The notes beneath the pieces were generated by a model. The model was not told where the DNA came from. It worked only from the letters and a program-made list of their open reading frames with translations, and searched no databases. From contig JAJYUP010000022.1 of assembly GCA_021792455.1 (NCBI GenBank), positions 1 through 33,448 on the forward strand: a DNA stretch of 33,448 bases, given 5' to 3'. Position 1 is the stretch's first letter; every line of letters starts with the position of its first letter. This document shows, one piece after another, positions 11,161-21,175 of the stretch. Position numbers and translations under genes: made by a program. The DNA is from Actinomycetes bacterium. Its GTDB lineage: Bacteria > Actinomycetota > Thermoleophilia > Solirubrobacterales > Solirubrobacteraceae.

Positions 11161-13575
11161 GTGGTGAGGAGAAGCAACGATCAGACGCCACTTCAGAGCG
11201 CGGGTCCACGTTCGAGGTCACGCCGCTTCGCGCTTGCCGCCGCCTGCCTGCTGTGCGCTGCGGGGATCGTCGTCTCTGTGGGCGTCGCGATGCTGTGGCG
11301 CACGAGCGCGGACGAACATGCCCGCCAGGTGCTCAGGAGCACCTCTGGGGAGGTGAGCGCAGCGCTTGCGAGCGATCTGCGCCGTGAAACGGACTTCCTC
11401 AGCACCCTGCGCGCGATCGTCTCGATGCAGCCTCACATCAGTGAGCGCAGCTTCCTGCAGTGGTATGAGGCACTCGAGCCGCGACACGGTGACCTCGGCA
11501 CCGTCGCGACCGCGGTGATCGCGGTCGTGCCGGCGAGGGAACTGGCCTCATTCCAGCGCAGGCGGTTCTCAGAACCGTCGTTTCGCGCGCTCGCGGGCAC
11601 GAGTCGCCAGATCATCCCTGCAGGGCGCCGCAGCCGTTACTGCCTGCTCTCAGCCGGGTTCTCGAAGCTCCAGCGGGCTCCCCTCGTGCAGCTGGTGGGG
11701 CACCTGGACTGGTGCACGAACACCGTTGCCGGGCTGGGTTCAGCGCTTGCCGCCGCCGCCCGCACAGGCGAGGTGGTCGTGACGCCTGAGGCGGTCGGCA
11801 CGACCTTCATCGGGTCGGCCGTGTACCGGCAGGGCGCACCGGTGGCGACAGCTGCGCAGAGGCAGGCGGCGACGATCGGCTGGGTGTGGAGCTCCTTCGA
11901 TGTGCAGGCACTGCTGAACAGCGTGATCGGCTCCGAGCACAAAACGAGCGTCTCGCTCTATCACCGGGACCCAGGCGAAGGGCTCACGAAGATCGGAAGT
12001 GCCGGGAGCGCGCCGAGGGCCGCGCTCGCCGACTCGTTCGCCCTCGACGGCAGCGGCGCGTGGCGCCTCGAAGTGAGAGGCGTGCCAGGACTTGGTGGAG
12101 GTGTGATCGCAGCGGGCCCATGGGTGGTCGTGCTCGTGCTCGGGGTGGTGGCGAGCATGCTCGTCTCGGCACTTGCGCTTGCGCTGCTGAGCTCCCGTCA
12201 GAGGGCCTTCGCGCTCGTCGCGGAGACGACCGGCAAGCTCCGCCACCAGGCTCTCCACGACTCCCTCACCGGGCTTCCGAACAGGGTGCTCGCGCTGGGG
12301 AGGGCTGAGCAGATGCTGGACAGGGCCCGCGAGCTCGGGGGTCAGGTCGCAGCGCTCTATGTCGACCTCGACGGCTTCAAGCACGTCAACGACACGTTCG
12401 GCCACGCGACTGGCGACGAGCTGCTCGTGATCGCAGCAGGCAGGCTCCGAAGCGTCGTGCGCGAAGGCGACACAGCCGCCCGCCTCGGTGGCGACGAGTT
12501 CGTCGTGCTGCTCGACTGCCGGCAGCTGAGGAGCGGACCGGTCCCGATCGCCAAGCGGATGCTCGAGGTGCTTCGTCAACCGTATGCGCTGAGCGGCGAG
12601 GGCGCGCGTCGCCTGTCGCTGACGGCAAGCATAGGGATCGCGGTCGGCACGCGACCAAGCGCGGAGGAGCTGCTGCGCGACGCCGACGTTGCGCTGTATG
12701 AGGCGAAGGCCGCGGGCCGCGACCGCTACGTCCTCTTCGAAGCTGCGATGCAGACGGCGGTGCAGGACCGCCTCACCCTCGAGATGGATCTGAGCGAGGC
12801 GCTCCTCCGGGGAGAGCTCCGACTCGTCTACCAGCCGACAGTGGAGCTCGGCAGCGGGCGGATCGTCGCGGCAGAGGCGCTGCTGCGCTGGGCTCACCCT
12901 GAGCGCGGGCTCGTCGAGCCAGCAGAGTTCGTGCCGATCGCGGAGCAGAGCGGCCTGATCGTGCCGATCGGCCGCTGGGTGCTCGAGCAGGCGTGCGCCC
13001 AGGCCGCCGACTGGCACCGGCGCGGCCATCGGATCGGGATCGCCGTGAACCTGTCAGCGCGCCAGATAGACCGCAGGGCGCTCGTCGACGAAGTGAGGAC
13101 GGCACTCGACGGCAGCGGCCTCGATCCAAGCTCTCTGACGCTGGAGGTGACGGAGACGACGATCATGCGAGAGGCCCGGCTGAGTGCACATCGGCTGCGG
13201 GCCCTGAAGGACCTCGGCGTGCGGCTTGCGATCGACGACTTCGGGACCGGCTACTCCTCGCTTGCCTATCTGCGCCAGTTCCCTGTGAACACGCTGAAGA
13301 TCGACCGCTCCTTCGTCGCCGGCATGACCTCCTCGAAGGAGTCTGCTGCCCTGGTGCGCACCCTCGTGCAGCTCGGGCGCACGCTGGAGCTCGAGACCCT
13401 CGCAGAGGGCATCGAGCAGCCCGCCCAGCTGGAGGCGCTGAGGCGCGAAGGCTGCAGGTACGGCCAGGGGTTCCTGTTCGCGATGCCGCTTCCCGCCGCG
13501 GCGCTGGAGGCGATGCTCCAGAGCGAGGCGGTGCGGCTGAGGGGTGAGGATGCGCAGCGCACGCTCAGGGTTTGA
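11161..13575 (+). CDS. membrane CHASE-GGDEF-EAL cyclic-di-GMP signalling protein
   Basis: 804 residues from GTG 11161 (a GTG at 11164 is equally possible; no SD seen). Membrane segment at about 21-46, a periplasmic CHASE-like sensor at about 75-250 (ISERSFLQWYEALEP, AVIAVVPARELASFQRR), and a second membrane segment at about 318-345. The GGDEF domain (from about 367, DSLTGLPNRVLALGRAEQML) has the intact signature RLGGDEFVVL and, five residues before it, REGD, which matches the RxxD inhibitory site. The EAL domain (about 545-790) keeps AAEALLRWAHP, VTETTIM, IDDFGTGYSSLAYLRQFP, KIDRSFV and AEGIEQ. Both synthesis and hydrolysis of c-di-GMP therefore look possible; which dominates cannot be told. 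The gene is convergent with the next gene and overlaps it by 11 bp. Confidence 0.93.
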   Translation: MVRRSNDQTPLQSAGPRSRSRRFALAAACLLCAAGIVVSVGVAMLWRTSADEHARQVLRSTSGEVSAALASDLRRETDFLSTLRAIVSMQPHISERSFLQWYEALEPRHGDLGTVATAVIAVVPARELASFQRRRFSEPSFRALAGTSRQIIPAGRRSRYCLLSAGFSKLQRAPLVQLVGHLDWCTNTVAGLGSALAAAARTGEVVVTPEAVGTTFIGSAVYRQGAPVATAAQRQAATIGWVWSSFDVQALLNSVIGSEHKTSVSLYHRDPGEGLTKIGSAGSAPRAALADSFALDGSGAWRLEVRGVPGLGGGVIAAGPWVVVLVLGVVASMLVSALALALLSSRQRAFALVAETTGKLRHQALHDSLTGLPNRVLALGRAEQMLDRARELGGQVAALYVDLDGFKHVNDTFGHATGDELLVIAAGRLRSVVREGDTAARLGGDEFVVLLDCRQLRSGPVPIAKRMLEVLRQPYALSGEGARRLSLTASIGIAVGTRPSAEELLRDADVALYEAKAAGRDRYVLFEAAMQTAVQDRLTLEMDLSEALLRGELRLVYQPTVELGSGRIVAAEALLRWAHPERGLVEPAEFVPIAEQSGLIVPIGRWVLEQACAQAADWHRRGHRIGIAVNLSARQIDRRALVDEVRTALDGSGLDPSSLTLEVTETTIMREARLSAHRLRALKDLGVRLAIDDFGTGYSSLAYLRQFPVNTLKIDRSFVAGMTSSKESAALVRTLVQLGRTLELETLAEGIEQPAQLEALRREGCRYGQGFLFAMPLPAAALEAMLQSEAVRLRGEDAQRTLRV

Positions 13576-14527
13576 GCAGGCGCCTCGCTCTCAGCGCTGC
13601 CTGGAGGCTCTGCAGCGCACTGGAGAGCATGCTGCGGTCGACAGGCGAGGGCTCGCCTGCGCCCGCGCCTGCAACGATCCCCGCCGCCTGCGCGGCGAGG
13701 TGCTGATGAAGGCGCTGCAGCTCTGCATACCGGCCCGCGAGCGCAACCCCAGGGTGATCTGCGAGCTCGGAGAGGGCTGCAGCGTAGGCGCGCTCGAGCT
13801 CGATCGCGCAGTGCGCATACCTGCCTGCCTTCAGGTCGCTTGAGGCCCGCAGCACGAGCTCCTCGCAGATGAGCGCAACTTCGCGGCCGCTGAGCAGCGC
13901 CGCAATCCGCTCCTGCGCAGCCGCCCCTGCGAGCAGACCTCGACGGTGGGAGCGCCGCGCGCGCATCGACGGTATCTGCCTCGTCGACTGCGACGGTCCG
14001 AGCGACTGCGACGGTCCGATCGACTGCTCGTCTGCCGGCAGGCGCAGTCGTCTCGCCTCGGTCGAGCGCCCGACGGAAAGCTGCTCGCCCTCGCCATAGC
14101 CCGCCCAGAGAGCGAGCGTCGCTCTGCGGTCGACGGTGCCTGCGCGATCGTCTGCGGCGGCGATCCTGCACGCCTCGCAGAGCCTGTCTATCGCGCCGAA
14201 GGCGATGTCGATCGCCTCCTCGGCCTCGATGCGCGCAAGGACCTCCCCTGCCGTCTCAGGGCTTGGCAGGGGATCGCCGTCTACGACGGTGACGAACGTG
14301 AATCGCTCCCGGTGGGATTCGCAGTCCCGATCGGGCGTCCGCGCAGGCGCAGGAGGCGCAGGCGGCGCGATCGCCGCGGTTGGTGCAGAAGGCACCTCGA
14401 CGGTGTGCACGATCGCCACCTGGTGACCTTCGCCTCCGTCGGCTGCCCGCAGCAGCCATCGCCCGTCCGGCACGCTGAGCATCGCAGGCAGCTTCACCTG
14501 CACGAACGCGAGAAGGCGCGGTGACAC
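13565..14527 (-). CDS. conserved hypothetical protein
   Basis: 320 residues from a GTG start at 14527. N-terminal part (1-150): FVQVKLPAMLSVPDGRWLLR, a Pro/Ala linker, RFTFVTVVDGDPLPSPETA and a helical segment EAIDIAFGAIDRLCEACRIA. A low-complexity stretch with LGPSQS twice (about 170-185), then a helical C-terminal half (AALLSGREVALICEELVLRASSDLKAGRYAHCAIELERAY and onwards). No signal peptide, membrane segment or recognised catalytic motif. TACGGT lies 6 nt before the GTG on the minus strand, suggesting a leaderless message. The gene is divergent from the phasin-like gene and overlaps the 3' end of the c-di-GMP gene. No function assigned. Confidence 0.7.
   Translation of the reverse strand: MSPRLLAFVQVKLPAMLSVPDGRWLLRAADGGEGHQVAIVHTVEVPSAPTAAIAPPAPPAPARTPDRDCESHRERFTFVTVVDGDPLPSPETAGEVLARIEAEEAIDIAFGAIDRLCEACRIAAADDRAGTVDRRATLALWAGYGEGEQLSVGRSTEARRLRLPADEQSIGPSQSLGPSQSTRQIPSMRARRSHRRGLLAGAAAQERIAALLSGREVALICEELVLRASSDLKAGRYAHCAIELERAYAAALSELADHPGVALAGRYAELQRLHQHLAAQAAGIVAGAGAGEPSPVDRSMLSSALQSLQAALRARRLLKP
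13985..14026. repeat. 18-bp tandem repeat inside the 320-residue hypothetical gene
   Basis: CGACTGCGACGGTCCGAG (13985-14002) is repeated at 14003-14020 with one change, plus a 6-bp partial copy. It encodes LGPSQS twice on the minus strand, in frame. Confidence 0.8.
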
Positions 14528-14533
14528 GCTCGC

Positions 14534-14539
14534 ACCGTA
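14534..14539 (-). promoter_or_regulatory. -10 element TACGGT, leaderless arrangement
   Basis: Minus-strand TACGGT, then GCGAGC (6 nt), then GTG 14527. The spacing is the same as at the genes starting at 2337, 6440 and 9731. Confidence 0.4.
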
Positions 14540-14631
14540 TCCTGATTGGCATCTGGAGGCTGTCGGCGCGCGGCTCGGGGTGTGTCCGGCAGCGCGACGA
14601 GGAGAAACTGAGCGAGACGAGGAGAACCGAG

Positions 14632-15093
14632 ATGACGAGCGGCAGCGAGAACGGAAGGGGACTGCGCGATCTGATCGCGAGCCGGACCGAGGATCGGCTC
14701 GGCCGGGCGCTCACCGAGCTGCTGGAGAGCCCGCTTTTGAGCGGCGCGATCGGGAGGGCGTTCGACGCGAAGGAGAAGGCCGCGCAGGCGCAGGAGCTCG
14801 CGATGGGCGCGCTGAACCTGCCGTCAGCCGCCGACATCGAGCGCTTGACACGCAGGCTGCGCTCAGTCTCCCAGCGGCTCGAGGCCGTCGAGGAGGTGGT
14901 CTCACGTCTCGACAGGGGCACGGGCAGCCGTCTCGCCGCAATCGAGCAGCGCCTGGAGTCCCTCGGAGGCACGGTGGAGGCGATCGCCGCGGAGATCGCG
15001 GCAGGCGGCGCGGCGAGCAAGAGCCCGCCCCGCCCGCGCGCGAGCAGCTCCGCGAAGCGGCGCTCCGGCAGCGCGCCGACGACGAAGGAGTGA
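14632..15093 (+). CDS. phasin-like coiled-coil protein
   Basis: 153 residues. ATG 14632 is chosen because AGGAGA lies 6 nt upstream; the frame is open back to 14521, but those codons look like non-coding leader. The N-terminal half (LRDLIASRTEDRLGRALTEL, AIGRAFDAKEKAAQAQELAM, GALNLPSAADIERL) and the following heptad-like helix (TRRLRSVSQRLEAVEEVVSRLDR, LAAIEQRLESLGGTVEAIAAEI) suggest a long coiled coil. The tail is basic and Ser/Pro/Arg-rich (residues 130-153). The pattern LPSAADIERLTRRLRSVSQRLE is like polyhydroxyalkanoate granule-associated proteins and their basic tails, from memory. No PHA synthase gene is in the window, so the role is tentative. Confidence 0.7.
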   Translation: MTSGSENGRGLRDLIASRTEDRLGRALTELLESPLLSGAIGRAFDAKEKAAQAQELAMGALNLPSAADIERLTRRLRSVSQRLEAVEEVVSRLDRGTGSRLAAIEQRLESLGGTVEAIAAEIAAGGAASKSPPRPRASSSAKRRSGSAPTTKE

Positions 15094-15146: not shown

Positions 15147-15854
15147 TCACGCGCCACTGGCGCGAACCGCTGCGGCGCCGACGCTTCGCGCACGCGCGAG
15201 CAGCAGCTCATCGTCGATGCGCCGCCGCTCACCGTGAGATCCGAACACGTCTGAGACGATGAGCAGGCAGCCGATCGCGATCTCACGCTTCGCGGCGAGC
15301 GCGAACAGGGCTGCCGCCTCCATCTCGATCGCAAGCGCCCCTGCCGCCCGCCAGCTCGCCTGTCTGCCCGAGGCTGCAGGCTCATAGAACAGATCGGTGC
15401 TGACGATCAGTCCAGCGAGCGTCGGCTGAGCACAACAGGAAAGCGCCTGGCTGAGAGACTCGCTGGCGCTGACGCGATCACCGCTGAGCAGCCGTCCGAC
15501 ACCGTCGGCGGCGAGCGCTTCGGTGGCGAGCACGACGTCGCCGAGCTGAAGGGCAGGATGGAGAGCGCCGCAGGTGCCGACGCGGACGGCGCAGGAGAGG
15601 CCGAGCAGGATCAGCTCCTCGAGCACGATCGCCGCGGACGGACCGCCGATGCCGGTGCTCTGGATGAGCAGCGGCTGCCCATCGGCCTTCGCGGGGCCTG
15701 AGTACCCCCACAGGCCGCGGTGATGGTTGAACATCTTCGGCGAGTCGATGAGCTCCTGCGCAAGCGCAAGCGCTCTGCCAGGGTCGCCGGGCAGCAGCGC
15801 GCGGGGTGCCGCCGCCGCCGCCGGCCTGAGGTGGATCGTGCGCTGCTCCCGCAT
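15147..15854 (-). CDS. purine nucleoside phosphorylase / uridine phosphorylase family protein
   Basis: 235 residues from ATG 15854. The frame continues upstream to 16031 but overlaps the divergent gene with Arg-rich sequence, so it is trimmed. The enzyme family splits nucleosides with phosphate into base and (deoxy)ribose-1-phosphate. Visible motifs: LLPGDPGRA near the N-terminus (phosphate-binding Gly loop), HHRGLWGYSG, QSTGIGGPSAAIVLEEL, the ribose/phosphate-binding Arg in VRVGTCGAL, and the base/ribose site AIEMEAAALFALA with the Ser-Asp of LLIVSDVFG. The Asp after Ser is typical of 6-oxo/6-aminopurine DeoD-type enzymes, so purine specificity is preferred, but uridine phosphorylase is not excluded. 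It shares a compact bidirectional promoter with the MerR-cyclase gene; together with hpt it would serve purine salvage. Confidence 0.85.
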   Translation of the reverse strand: MREQRTIHLRPAAAAAPRALLPGDPGRALALAQELIDSPKMFNHHRGLWGYSGPAKADGQPLLIQSTGIGGPSAAIVLEELILLGLSCAVRVGTCGALHPALQLGDVVLATEALAADGVGRLLSGDRVSASESLSQALSCCAQPTLAGLIVSTDLFYEPAASGRQASWRAAGALAIEMEAAALFALAAKREIAIGCLLIVSDVFGSHGERRRIDDELLLARARSVGAAAVRASGA

Positions 15855-15864
15855 TCCTGTGGCG

Positions 15865-15874
15865 ACTCTAGACT
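15865..15874. promoter_or_regulatory. overlapping divergent -10 elements
   Basis: ACTCTAGACT: the plus strand reads TAGACT at 15869-15874 towards the MerR-cyclase gene, and the minus strand reads TAGAGT at 15870-15865 towards the phosphorylase gene. The two hexamers share the TA pair at 15869-15870. Start codons lie 9 nt (GTG 15884; 7 nt for ATG 15882) and 10 nt (ATG 15854) away, so polymerase should bind in only one direction at a time. Confidence 0.5.
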
Positions 15875-15881
15875 GCGATCG

Positions 15882-15917
15882 ATGTGGGTGTTGATCCGAT
15901 CGCTTCCCCCGCGATGA
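15882..15917 (+). CDS. possible 11-residue leader peptide MWVLIRSLPPR
   Basis: ATG 15882 lies 7 nt after TAGACT, a good leaderless distance, and opens an 11-codon frame whose TGA (15915-15917) overlaps an ATG at 15914 as ATGA. That ATG is in frame with the MerR-cyclase protein (its residue 11). Translation-coupled expression of the cyclase is therefore possible. The alternative is that GTG 15884 in the other frame is the true start and this frame is chance. Confidence 0.3.
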   Translation: MWVLIRSLPPR

Positions 15918-17287
15918 AGCGCGTGCCCTCAGACGGCGCCTTGGCAGCTGCTGCACCCTCGCGCGCGCGTGCGGCCGCGTCGCTGCCTGCGAGGACGGCG
16001 ACCGTACCCCCCCTCGCGTCCGCCGCCGCAACAGCGATCCGTTCGCCTTGGATCGTTTCGGGGCGGACGCGAGGGCAGGCAGAGCCGCCGTCAGGCAAGG
16101 TGGAGCTCACGTTCGCGAGGGTCGCGGCGATGGCAGGCGTCTCAGAAGCGACGGTGAGGCGCTGGGTGAGGGATGGCCTCGTCCCTCAGTTCGACGGCCA
16201 CTGGACGCGAGCGTCCGCGGCGCACGCGAAGCTCGTCGCGAGGCTGCGCGCTCGCGGCTACACCGTCTCTCAGATAAGGGAGGCAAGCCAGTCTGGACGG
16301 CTTGCCTTCGGCTACATCGAGGAACTGCTGCCAAGCACCGACGGCCGGTTCACGCTTGCCGAGGCGGTGCGGATCACGGGGCTGCAGCCTGAGCTGGTGG
16401 AGCGCGTCTGCGCATCGACGGGGCTGAGCGGCGTCTCGACGGAGTCGATCTCCGAGCAGGATCTGCAGATGCTGAGGTACGTGGCCGACATCATCGCCGC
16501 AGGCTTTCCGCTGCCGGCGCTGCTCCAGCTGCTCCGGGTGTATGGGCAGGCGATGGCACAGATCGCCGACGCCGAGGTGCGGCTGTTCCACCTGTACGTG
16601 CACGAGCCGTTGATGCGCGCAGGCGTGCCAGGCGCCGAGATGACGGAGGAGATGGAGTCGCTGACGCGGGACGTGCTGCCGTTCGTCGTTCCCTTCATGA
16701 ACTACTTCCACGGGCGTCAGCTCGCCCACTTCATCGAACAGGACGTGATCGGCCACATCGAGGCGGACCTCGACGGCGAGGCGGACACGGAGGGGCGCAT
16801 GCGGGTGACGATCGCCTTTGCCGATCTCGCCGGCTACACGCGTCTGACCGAGGAGCGCGGCGACGAGGGGGCTGTAGAGGCGGTGGAGAGGTTCTCCCAG
16901 GCGGTCTCGCGAACGCTGCCGATCGACGCCCGCGTGATAAAGACGCTGGGAGACGAGGTGATGATCGTCGCAGCCGACCCCGTCGGGCTGACTGAATGGG
17001 CGGTGGAGTTCGCCCACAGTCGGGGTGCCGGCTCCGAGGCGCCGACCCGGATAGGCATCCATCACGGCGAGGCGCTCTACCGCGACGGCGACTACTACGG
17101 CAGGGAGGTGAACCGGGCGGCACGCGTGGTTGCGCGCGCCTCCGGCGGAGAGGTGCTGGTGACGCGCCCTGTCGTCGAGGCGGCGGCGAGCTCAGGCAGG
17201 GTGGGCTTCGAACGGATCGGGGAGGTGAGCCTGAAGGGCTTCTCCCAGCCGACGGAGCTCTTCCAGGCGCTGATCGTCGAGGACTGA
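15884..17287 (+). CDS. MerR-type HTH / adenylate cyclase regulatory / class III cyclase fusion
   Basis: 467 residues. The first 70 are Ala/Pro-rich. Residues about 73-135 form a MerR-like winged helix (LTFARVAAMAGVSEATVRRW, VRDGLVPQFDGHWTRA, ARGYTVSQIREASQSG). Residues about 140-290 match the helical regulatory domain of Rv1264-type cyclases (FGYIEELLPS, RFTLAEAVRITGLQPELVER, EMESLTRDVLPFVVPFMNYF). Residues about 305-467 are the catalytic domain: metal-binding Asp in TIAFADLAGYTRLTEERGD and KTLGDEVMIVAAD, then RIGIHHGEALYRDGDYYGRE and VNRAARVVARASGGEVLVT with the transition-state Asn and Arg. The active site looks complete for one half of a homodimer, so it should make cAMP. Start is GTG 15884, or ATG 15914 if the leader-peptide reading is right. 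The gene is divergent from the phosphorylase; tilS starts 20 bp after it. Confidence 0.88.
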   Translation: MGVDPIASPAMKRVPSDGALAAAAPSRARAAASLPARTATVPPLASAAATAIRSPWIVSGRTRGQAEPPSGKVELTFARVAAMAGVSEATVRRWVRDGLVPQFDGHWTRASAAHAKLVARLRARGYTVSQIREASQSGRLAFGYIEELLPSTDGRFTLAEAVRITGLQPELVERVCASTGLSGVSTESISEQDLQMLRYVADIIAAGFPLPALLQLLRVYGQAMAQIADAEVRLFHLYVHEPLMRAGVPGAEMTEEMESLTRDVLPFVVPFMNYFHGRQLAHFIEQDVIGHIEADLDGEADTEGRMRVTIAFADLAGYTRLTEERGDEGAVEAVERFSQAVSRTLPIDARVIKTLGDEVMIVAADPVGLTEWAVEFAHSRGAGSEAPTRIGIHHGEALYRDGDYYGREVNRAARVVARASGGEVLVTRPVVEAAASSGRVGFERIGEVSLKGFSQPTELFQALIVED

Positions 17288-17307: not shown

Positions 17308-18429
17308 ATGCCCGAGCCGCGAGCCCCGATGGGACAGCCCGATGCCCCGCTCGACCCAGAGCCCGCCGCCGCCGTGCGTGCGGAGCGTGGTGAGGGCATC
17401 TGTGCGGAGCGTGGTGAGGGCACCGCTGCGGAGCGCCCGAAGGCAGACGACGTCGCGTGCACCGCCGAAGAGATCATCGAGCGCGTCGTGCAGGAGGGCC
17501 TTCTGAGGAGGGGTGGGCCCGTCGTCGTGATGCTGTCCGGCGGCCGCGACTCAGTCTGCCTGATCGATCTCGCCTGCTCGATCTGCTCTGCTGAGAACGT
17601 GCAGGCTCTGCACGTCAACTACGGGCTGCGAGCGCAGGCGGATGAGGATGAGGCTCATTGCGAGCAGCTGTGCGAGCGTGTGGGAGTGAGGCTGACGGCG
17701 CACCGTGTCTCGCGCCCTGCGAAAGCCGGCAACCTGCAGGCCTGGGCCCGCGAGGTGCGCTACGCCGCGGCGAGGCAGATCGCCGAGCAGAAGGGGGCGC
17801 TGATCGCCGTGGGGCACACGGCGACCGACCAGGTCGAGACGATCCTCTACCGCCTCGCGGCCTCGCCTGGGAGGCGCGCTCTGCTCGGCATGAGCGCGAG
17901 GGAGGGCCGTCTGATCCGCCCACTGCTGTCGCTCACGCGCGAGCAGACCGCCGCCTACTGCATCGCGAGAGGGCTGCGCTGGCGCGAGGATGAGAGCAAC
18001 CTGAGCGCGCGCTACGCCCGCAATCGCGTGCGGCATGGCCTGCTGGAGGCGCTGAGGGCGGTGCACCCTGCGGCACAGGGCAACGTGCTTCGCACAGCGG
18101 AGCTGCTGCGGCAGGAGACCGCTCTGCTGGATGGTCTGGTCGACGACGAGCTCGACGGGGGGGCGAGCATCTCGCTCGAGCGACTGCAGCAGCTGCAGCC
18201 CGCGCTGGCGCGCCTGCTGCTGATCCGCCTCGCCGAGGACGCATGTGGACGATACGTCCCACAGGCCGGCGATCGGGTGGCCGAGCTGCTCGAGCTGGGG
18301 CGCAAAGCGCCCCGGGCGCAGCTGCACGTCGGCGGCAACGTCGCCGCGATGATCGAGGACGGGCGTTTGTGGATGGTGAAGCTGCCCCCACGCGATCGCG
18401 GGGAGGCGGGCGGTGCGGGCGGAGGTTAG
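17308..18429 (+). CDS. tilS: tRNA(Ile)-lysidine synthase
   Basis: 373 residues. TilS adds lysine to C34 of the AUA-reading tRNA-Ile, using ATP. The N-type PP-loop signature VVVMLSGGRDSVCLIDLACS is at about residues 70-90, followed by LHVNYGLRAQADEDEAHCEQ, AVGHTATDQVETILYRLA and RLIRPLLSLTREQTAAYC, then WREDESNLSARYARNRVRHGLL typical of the family. The C-terminal substrate-binding part is short. The start ATG 17308 is 20 bp after the cyclase stop with GGAGG 12 nt upstream; TACGCT at 17300-17305 may be a promoter for the later ATG 17329. The N-terminal 55 residues are an extension containing two copies of the octapeptide [RC]AERGEG[IT]. The gene heads the tilS-hpt-ftsH-fol block. Active TilS fits the frequent ATA codons in the window. 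Confidence 0.93.
   Translation: MPEPRAPMGQPDAPLDPEPAAAVRAERGEGICAERGEGTAAERPKADDVACTAEEIIERVVQEGLLRRGGPVVVMLSGGRDSVCLIDLACSICSAENVQALHVNYGLRAQADEDEAHCEQLCERVGVRLTAHRVSRPAKAGNLQAWAREVRYAAARQIAEQKGALIAVGHTATDQVETILYRLAASPGRRALLGMSAREGRLIRPLLSLTREQTAAYCIARGLRWREDESNLSARYARNRVRHGLLEALRAVHPAAQGNVLRTAELLRQETALLDGLVDDELDGGASISLERLQQLQPALARLLLIRLAEDACGRYVPQAGDRVAELLELGRKAPRAQLHVGGNVAAMIEDGRLWMVKLPPRDRGEAGGAGGG
17378..17425. repeat. 2 x 24-bp tandem repeat in the tilS 5' end
   Basis: GTGCGGAGCGTGGTGAGGGC starts both units (17378-17401 and 17402-17425), with a third degenerate start at 17426. It encodes AERGEG-type octapeptides in the non-conserved N-terminal extension. Confidence 0.85.
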
Positions 18430-18432
18430 ACT
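18427..18432 (+). promoter_or_regulatory. -10 element TAGACT overlapping the tilS stop codon
   Basis: TAG of TAGACT is the tilS stop codon. Seven nucleotides (CCAGCAG) separate the hexamer from the GTG at 18440 chosen for hpt. This allows hpt its own near-leaderless transcript inside the operon. Confidence 0.5.
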
Positions 18433-18439
18433 CCAGCAG

Positions 18440-19027
18440 GTGGCTGCGCAGCACACCGTCGCGCCCGCGCACGGCGAAGCGGACAGGCCGAAGGTGCCGG
18501 TGCCGCCAGGCGTGGGCGAGGTGCTCGTCTCCGAGCAGGCGCTCCGCGCGCGCGTGCGCGAGCTCGGTGAGGCGATCTCCGAGGACTACGAGGGCAGGAC
18601 ACCGCTGCTCGTCGGGGTGCTGAAGGGCGCGGTGTTCTTCCTGTCCGATCTGATGCGCGAGATCGAGGTGCCCGTCGAGGTCGACTTCATGGCGGTCGCC
18701 TCCTACGGCTCAGCGACCGACTCCTCCGGCGTCGTCCGCATCTTGAAGGATCTCGAGGAAGCGATCGAAGGCAGGGATGTGCTGATCGTCGAGGACGTGG
18801 TGGACTCCGGGTTGACCCTGCAGTACCTGATGCGAAACCTGGGTTCGAGGGGTCCGGCCTCGCTCGAGGTGTGCACGCTTCTGAACAAGCCCGACCGCCG
18901 CCGGGTGCATCTGCCGATGCGCTACGTGGGATTCGACATACCTGACGAGTTCGTCGTCGGATATGGGCTCGACCATGGGCAGCGCTACAGGAACCTGCCC
19001 TTCGTCGCGGCGCTGGAGCGGCGATGA
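18440..19027 (+). CDS. hpt: hypoxanthine phosphoribosyltransferase
   Basis: 195 residues from GTG 18440. An earlier in-frame GTG at 18413 would overlap tilS and lacks a better signal. The enzyme converts hypoxanthine (and usually guanine) with PRPP to IMP or GMP. Visible are LGEAISEDYEGRTPLLVGVLKGA (first PPi-binding loop, LKGA), VDFMAVASYGS (flexible loop), the PRPP signature DVLIVEDVVDSGLTLQYL, and VGFDIPDEFVVGYGLDHGQRYRNLPFV at the C-terminus, all hallmarks of bacterial HPRT. The N-terminus is about 20 residues longer than most. It follows tilS directly, as in many Gram-positive bacteria and Actinobacteria, and precedes ftsH by 168 bp. Together with the upstream nucleoside phosphorylase it completes inosine/guanosine salvage. 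Confidence 0.95.
   Translation: MAAQHTVAPAHGEADRPKVPVPPGVGEVLVSEQALRARVRELGEAISEDYEGRTPLLVGVLKGAVFFLSDLMREIEVPVEVDFMAVASYGSATDSSGVVRILKDLEEAIEGRDVLIVEDVVDSGLTLQYLMRNLGSRGPASLEVCTLLNKPDRRRVHLPMRYVGFDIPDEFVVGYGLDHGQRYRNLPFVAALERR

Positions 19028-19195: not shown

Positions 19196-21175
<1,980 letters not shown>

What the first reader, a model, noticed from the sequence alone, without database searches (positions are those of the whole stretch)
15884..17287. MerR-type DNA-binding domain fused to a class III adenylate cyclase
The order HTH - Rv1264-like regulatory domain - catalytic domain puts promoter recognition and cAMP synthesis in one protein. The catalytic Asp, Asn and Arg residues are present. 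It could link DNA occupancy to cAMP production, or sense a signal (pH or lipid, as in Rv1264) and act on transcription. The HTH may instead have been recruited as a protein-interaction domain.
Basis: partly seen in the sequence, partly recalled or inferred. Interest (0 to 1): 0.6.

Follow-up and report, generated by a model that had tools for sequence, protein, structure and literature searches.

The report
DNA-binding-domain adenylate cyclase in Solirubrobacterales
This is a real and conserved bacterial enzyme that joins a DNA-binding-type domain to a complete cAMP-making domain; it is found throughout one order of soil actinobacteria, nearly always beside the same housekeeping genes, but whether it binds DNA, and whether DNA controls its cAMP output, is untested.

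Summary
The ORF encodes a MerR-type HTH, an Rv1264-type regulatory domain (Pfam Ad_Cy_reg) and a class III cyclase domain, all above Pfam cut-offs. The fusion is not chance. Of 76 aligned Solirubrobacterales orthologs, all carry the complete catalytic set, and the recognition helix keeps T-x-x-R-W (75/76, 75/76, 76/76). The gene lies just upstream of tilS in 73 of 80 loci, usually followed by hpt and ftsH. No equivalent appeared outside the order in 199 class genomes.

New points: (1) the HTH is closest to RacA/BldC-type MerR domains; the arginine that reads bases in BldC is kept, but the wing is shortened and lacks BldC's basic residues. (2) The regulatory domain contains a second, non-basic MerR-like fold, so the sensor half of Rv1264-type cyclases looks MerR-derived. 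(3) The likely start is ATG 15914, behind a leaderless mini-ORF on a divergent promoter shared with a purine phosphorylase.

Most likely a soluble cyclase that can sit on DNA, its cAMP read by the genome's Crp. DNA binding is about 55% likely; coupling to catalysis is unproven. New variant of a known kind.

The parts
15914..17287 (+). Cyclase gene, likely start ATG 15914 (457 aa). The 15884 GTG of the finding is an upstream in-frame codon; conserved homology starts near 16103. The first ~62 residues are not conserved
16100..16309 (+). Domain 1: MerR-type HTH (aa 1-70 counted from GTG 16100). Recognition helix about aa 16-24 (16145-16171), with T18 at 16151, R21 at 16160 and W22 at 16163; short wing with invariant W35
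16337..16594 (+). Domain 2: second, acidic MerR-like winged-helix fold (aa 80-165) inside Pfam Ad_Cy_reg
16511..16768 (+). Two long helices (aa 138-173 and 178-223) leading into the catalytic domain
16796..17275 (+). Class III cyclase homology domain (aa 233-392). D242 at 16823, K281 at 16940, D285 at 16952, D331 at 17090, N338 at 17111, R342 at 17123
15864..15874 (.). GACTCTAGACT: symmetric element holding a -10 for each direction (TAGACT 15869-15874 on +; TAGAGT on -)
15882..15917 (+). Leaderless mini-ORF MWVLIRSLPPR*, ATG exactly 7 nt after the -10; its stop overlaps the cyclase ATG
15147..15854 (-). Divergent purine/uridine phosphorylase-superfamily gene (PNP_UDP_1) sharing the promoter
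17308..18429 (+). tilS, starting 20 nt after the cyclase stop; cyclase-tilS order conserved in 73 of 80 loci
18413..19027 (+). hpt (phosphoribosyltransferase); exact start uncertain
19196..21175 (+). ftsH; exact start uncertain

Best explanation
A soluble, probably dimeric class III adenylate cyclase of the Rv1264 type. Its regulatory half is built from two MerR-like domains. Domain 1 keeps a RacA/BldC-like recognition helix and most likely binds DNA. Domain 2 and the following helices form the Rv1264-type sensor and transmission unit that sets the alignment of the catalytic dimer. The protein would therefore be a DNA-associated cyclase whose cAMP is read by the genome's Crp. SHOWN: the domain order, complete catalytic set, conservation of both halves, fixed genomic position, and the MerR relationship of both N-terminal domains. 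INFERRED: enzyme activity, DNA binding, dimerisation, the Crp link, and any coupling between DNA binding and catalysis. The most plausible DNA target is its own divergent promoter and operon, but no binding site was demonstrated.
For: Pfam hits in order, above cut-off, in all 49 orthologs scanned. All six catalytic residues 76/76; T18 75/76, R21 75/76, W22 76/76; domain 1 mean net charge +4.1 against -5.1 for domain 2 and mostly negative values for the homologous region of distant relatives. The domain 1 profile finds DNA-binding RacA (7.5e-5), MerR and NmlR, and BldC more weakly (0.037). In BldC the residue equivalent to R21 makes the base contact, and R30A abolishes binding (PMC5859096). The AF2 model is good (pLDDT 86.7) with Rv1264 the best PDB match; the listed matches of the N-terminal fragment are Rv1264 and MerR-family proteins. 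Syntenic across the order and absent outside it in the class. The genome has one Crp with the FGELA...RSA motif, and the only other class III cyclase found appears to lack the catalytic Asn.
Against: The wing is about five residues short and lacks the His46/Arg47/Arg48 equivalents that dock BldC in the minor groove. R21 is also kept in many distant relatives with acidic HTHs, so its conservation may be partly structural. No binding motif was found beyond a promoter-like element, which in other genera shrinks to the -10. No biochemical data exist for this family in the papers searched.
Confidence: 0.5

Rival explanations
1. An Rv1264-like cyclase whose HTH is only a structural, dimerisation or protein-docking module. 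It responds to pH, lipid or another ligand and does not bind DNA.
For: Short wing without basic residues; related PF16701 cyclases keep the fold with an acidic, degenerate helix; Rv1264 itself lacks the HTH yet is a regulated enzyme (its alignment begins after the HTH).
Against: T18, R21 and W22 together are almost invariant in this clade and its domain 1 is basic. A pure packing module need not keep a RacA/BldC-type recognition helix.
Confidence: 0.4
2. Primarily a transcription regulator in which the cyclase domain serves as an ATP or cAMP sensor and makes little or no cAMP, as has been suggested for the mycobacterial Mclx2/3 proteins.
For: Cyclase-HTH fusions have been read that way for Mclx proteins that lack catalytic residues (PMC4452763).
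Against: All six catalytic residues are invariant in 76 orthologs, unlike Mclx2/3.
Confidence: 0.07
3. Artefact: two neighbouring genes joined by a sequencing or assembly error, or a chance HTH match.
For: None found; the window comes from an incomplete assembly (83% complete).
Against: The same full-length ORF occurs in dozens of independent genomes, including complete ones such as Paraconexibacter antarcticus. Shuffled profiles score far below the real match.
Confidence: 0.01

Closest known systems
Rv1264 of Mycobacterium tuberculosis (class III adenylyl cyclase; PDB 1y10/1y11, 2ev1-2ev4)
   Same: Ad_Cy_reg plus cyclase domain; aligns over aa 38-371 (2.9e-22); best PDB fold match; catalytic residues shared.
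   Different: Rv1264 lacks the N-terminal HTH: alignment starts at its residue 24, on the helices that follow the HTH. Sequence identity about 25%.
RacA / BldC type MerR-like DNA-binding domains
   Same: T-x-x-R-W recognition helix; RacA is the best solved match to domain 1 (7.5e-5), BldC weaker (0.037).
   Different: Shortened wing without the basic residues; fused to a cyclase; BldC acts as small cooperative head-to-tail multimers on direct repeats (PMC5859096).
Mycobacterial Mclx proteins (Rv0386, Rv1358, Rv2488c)
   Same: Class III cyclase domain and a DNA-binding HTH in one polypeptide (PMC4452763).
   Different: LuxR-type HTH at the C-terminus, sometimes with an AAA/NB-ARC domain between; no Ad_Cy_reg mentioned there. 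Here the HTH is MerR-type and N-terminal.
Other actinobacterial PF16701 cyclases with an N-terminal HTH-like segment (e.g. loci L120-L131)
   Same: Same overall order; MerR_1 still detected in 3 of 12.
   Different: Recognition helix mostly lacks Thr and Trp and is mostly acidic; a separate clade from the Solirubrobacterales proteins.

Membership tests
Rv1264-type class III adenylate cyclase | Class III cyclase homology domain (PF00211) | tested here: met
   2.2e-10, above cut-off, and in 49/49 orthologs
Rv1264-type class III adenylate cyclase | Ad_Cy_reg regulatory domain (PF16701) | tested here: met
   1.7e-9, above cut-off; Rv1264 the top fold match
Rv1264-type class III adenylate cyclase | All six catalytic residues, including the Lys/Asp pair for ATP | tested here: met
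   76/76
Rv1264-type class III adenylate cyclase | pH- or lipid-responsive catalysis | not testable with these tools
   needs enzyme assays
MerR family regulator | MerR-type winged HTH | tested here: met
   PF13411 6.1e-8; hhalign score 66.2 against a shuffle maximum of 15.2
MerR family regulator | Basic wing making DNA contacts | tested here: not met
   wing ~5 residues short, no conserved Arg/His; the claim made is 'MerR-type HTH', not 'MerR regulator'
MerR family regulator | Dimerisation by a long coiled coil right after the HTH | tested here: inconclusive
   a long helix follows domain 2, not domain 1; no dimer was modelled
MerR family regulator | Binds and activates promoters with long -35/-10 spacers | not testable with these tools
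   no binding data
RacA/BldC-like DNA-binding domain | Recognition helix T-x-x-R-W with base-reading Arg | tested here: met
   T18 75/76, R21 75/76, W22 76/76
RacA/BldC-like DNA-binding domain | Wing His46/Arg47/Arg48 (BldC) | tested here: not met
   absent in the alignments
Mclx cyclase-LuxR fusion | C-terminal LuxR HTH | tested here: not met
   HTH is N-terminal and MerR-type; no LuxR hit

The most novel reading that the evidence does not exclude
A cyclase gated by DNA: docking of the RacA/BldC-like HTH on a specific site switches the MerR-derived sensor and thereby cAMP synthesis, so that occupancy of a chromosomal site is reported as a second messenger. By descent, the sensor half of Rv1264-type cyclases would be a tandem of MerR domains, with Rv1264 having lost the first HTH.
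Probability: 0.2. Interest if true: 0.85.

Novelty: new variant of a known kind. Interest (0 to 1): 0.52.

Why it matters
Cyclases normally report signals from membranes, small molecules or pH. A conserved cyclase with an apparently intact DNA-recognition helix would be a one-protein link from chromosome state to cAMP, and it occurs order-wide in a fixed housekeeping locus, so it is not an oddity. The second finding, a MerR-like fold inside the regulatory domain, suggests an origin for the sensor of Rv1264, a long-studied pH-responsive enzyme, and predicts how signals could travel through it (as in MerR proteins, by moving the helices that follow the winged helix).

Tried and rejected
Footprinting 250 nt upstream of 74 orthologs for shared palindromes or direct repeats gave mainly words from conserved coding sequence of neighbouring genes, not a binding site. 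The symmetric GACTYTARACT element first looked like an operator: the pattern with a downstream ATG occurs once in each of 15 of 24 genus genomes, and the 11-mer once in the own genome. Outside the genus only the -10 part persists and both genes start 7-10 nt from it, so a bidirectional leaderless promoter explains it better; about one chance copy of the 11-mer per genome is what base composition would give (my estimate, not computed by a tool). The Rv1264 regulatory fragment alone gives no Pfam MerR hit even at E 10, so its MerR descent rests on domain 2 of the orthologs, profile matches and fold. Literature searches for a MerR-cyclase fusion found none in the open-access library; that is not proof of absence. 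A chance HTH was rejected with shuffled and reversed profile controls.

Full report
What is there. The ORF at 15884-17287 (+) encodes, in order, MerR_1 (6.1e-8), Ad_Cy_reg (1.7e-9) and Guanylate_cyc (2.2e-10), each above its Pfam cut-off. The best solved relative is Rv1264 (2.9e-22). Conserved homology begins near 16103. Residue numbers below count from GTG 16100, but the likely start is ATG 15914 (see promoter).

It is a conserved protein, not an accident. In the first 61 relatives it aligns full length at 41-74% identity in about 43 genomes (my count). A genome-collection scan gave 80 loci, including Paraconexibacter, Svornostia, Solirubrobacter and Patulibacter. In 199 genomes of the class, 35 carry a full-length match at E below 1e-126, all in the same order; outside the order only weaker, mostly catalytic-domain matches appear. 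The neighbourhood is fixed: tilS follows in 73 of 80 loci, hpt in 59 and ftsH in 56, many of the rest being cut by contig ends. In B. subtilis tilS and hprT also lie before ftsH, and their products have been reported to activate ftsH (PMC8152036); a functional link here is only a lead.

Catalysis. All six class III catalytic residues are invariant in 76 sequences, including the Lys/Asp pair expected for ATP. The genome holds one other class III cyclase, whose sequence reads TVGLAQR where the catalytic Asn is expected, and one cNMP-binding protein: a Crp with an FGELA...RSA motif and a Crp HTH. The assembly is 83% complete, so others may be missing.

The HTH. The domain 1 profile finds RacA (7.5e-5), MerR and NmlR, and BldC (0.037). 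Against local MerR proteins hhalign scores 66.2, with a maximum of 15.2 in 60 column shuffles. In BldC, Thr27 and Trp31 contact phosphates, Arg30 reads a base and R30A abolishes binding, while His46/Arg47/Arg48 of the wing dock in the minor groove (PMC5859096). The equivalents T18, R21 and W22 are kept in 75, 75 and 76 of 76 orthologs, and the domain is basic. The wing is about five residues short with no conserved basic residue, although W35 is invariant. In related cyclases elsewhere in the phylum the same segment is mostly acidic and usually lacks the Thr and Trp, though the Arg is often kept.

A second MerR-like fold. Residues 80-165, inside Ad_Cy_reg, also match MerR: hhalign 7e-7, score 38.6 against a shuffle maximum of 17.9; MerR_1 hits in 14 of 33 orthologs, best 1.6e-6; RacA at 0.014 and CarH at 0.13 among solved structures, beside Rv1264 itself. 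Windows from the rest of the same protein score near background. The AF2 model of the full protein has pLDDT 86.7. The listed Foldseek matches of residues 1-185 are Rv1264 and MerR-family proteins, although none passes E 0.001. Domain 2 is acidic (mean -5.1) and is unlikely to bind DNA. Rv1264 aligns from the post-HTH helices of domain 1 onward, as if it were the same layout without the first HTH. Which state is ancestral is not resolved: the tree is rooted at the midpoint only, and the Rv1264 fragment alone gives no Pfam MerR hit.

Promoter and start. The phosphorylase-superfamily gene (15147-15854, -) and the cyclase diverge from a gap of about 27 nt. In it lies GACTCTAGACT, with TAGACT exactly 7 nt before ATG 15882 and, on the other strand, TAGAGT 10 nt before the phosphorylase ATG. 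The layout recurs in 12 of 12 same-genus loci in which the element was found by the pattern. ATG 15882 opens an 11-codon ORF whose stop overlaps ATG 15914 of the cyclase frame; relatives mostly show 9-13-codon mini-ORFs with the cyclase start overlapping or close to the stop, and in L004 the leaderless ATG is itself the cyclase start. The element is unique to this locus where found, but shrinks to the -10 in other genera, so I read it as a bidirectional leaderless promoter, not as a proven operator.

Mechanism and verdict. The best-supported reading is a soluble Rv1264-type cyclase with a probably functional DNA-binding HTH. Its sensor would work through MerR-like domains and the long helices that join them to the catalytic domain, and Crp would read the product. 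DNA gating of catalysis is attractive but unsupported by any direct result (about 20%). The main rival, an HTH used only for packing or docking, is nearly as likely.

Noticed in passing
window 15854-15917: A symmetric promoter element gives two leaderless genes about 27 nt apart (phosphorylase and a mini-ORF coupled to the cyclase). Mini-ORF length and ATG spacing are conserved in the genus, but the peptide sequence is not.
   Followed up: yes
L171 1162-3540 (own genome, contig C231): The other class III cyclase of the genome (zinc-ribbon-like N-terminus, cyclase domain, ATPase-like region) appears to lack the catalytic Asn (TVGLAQR), so it may be inactive.
   Followed up: partly
L073, L096, L103: Public records titled Bifidobacterium breve carry clearly Solirubrobacterales sequence in the same gene order; the organism names look wrong.
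   Followed up: no
window 14521-15093 (+): A conserved small protein without a convincing Pfam family lies beyond the phosphorylase gene; it was matched in 51 of 80 loci.
   Followed up: no
window 11161-13575 (+): CHASE-GGDEF-EAL protein (c-di-GMP turnover) about 2.3 kb from the cyclase; matched in only 2 of 80 loci.
   Followed up: no
L049, L051 and others, upstream of the cyclase: In some relatives an extra gene lies between the shared promoter and the cyclase, so the promoter stays with the operon and not with the cyclase itself.
   Followed up: partly
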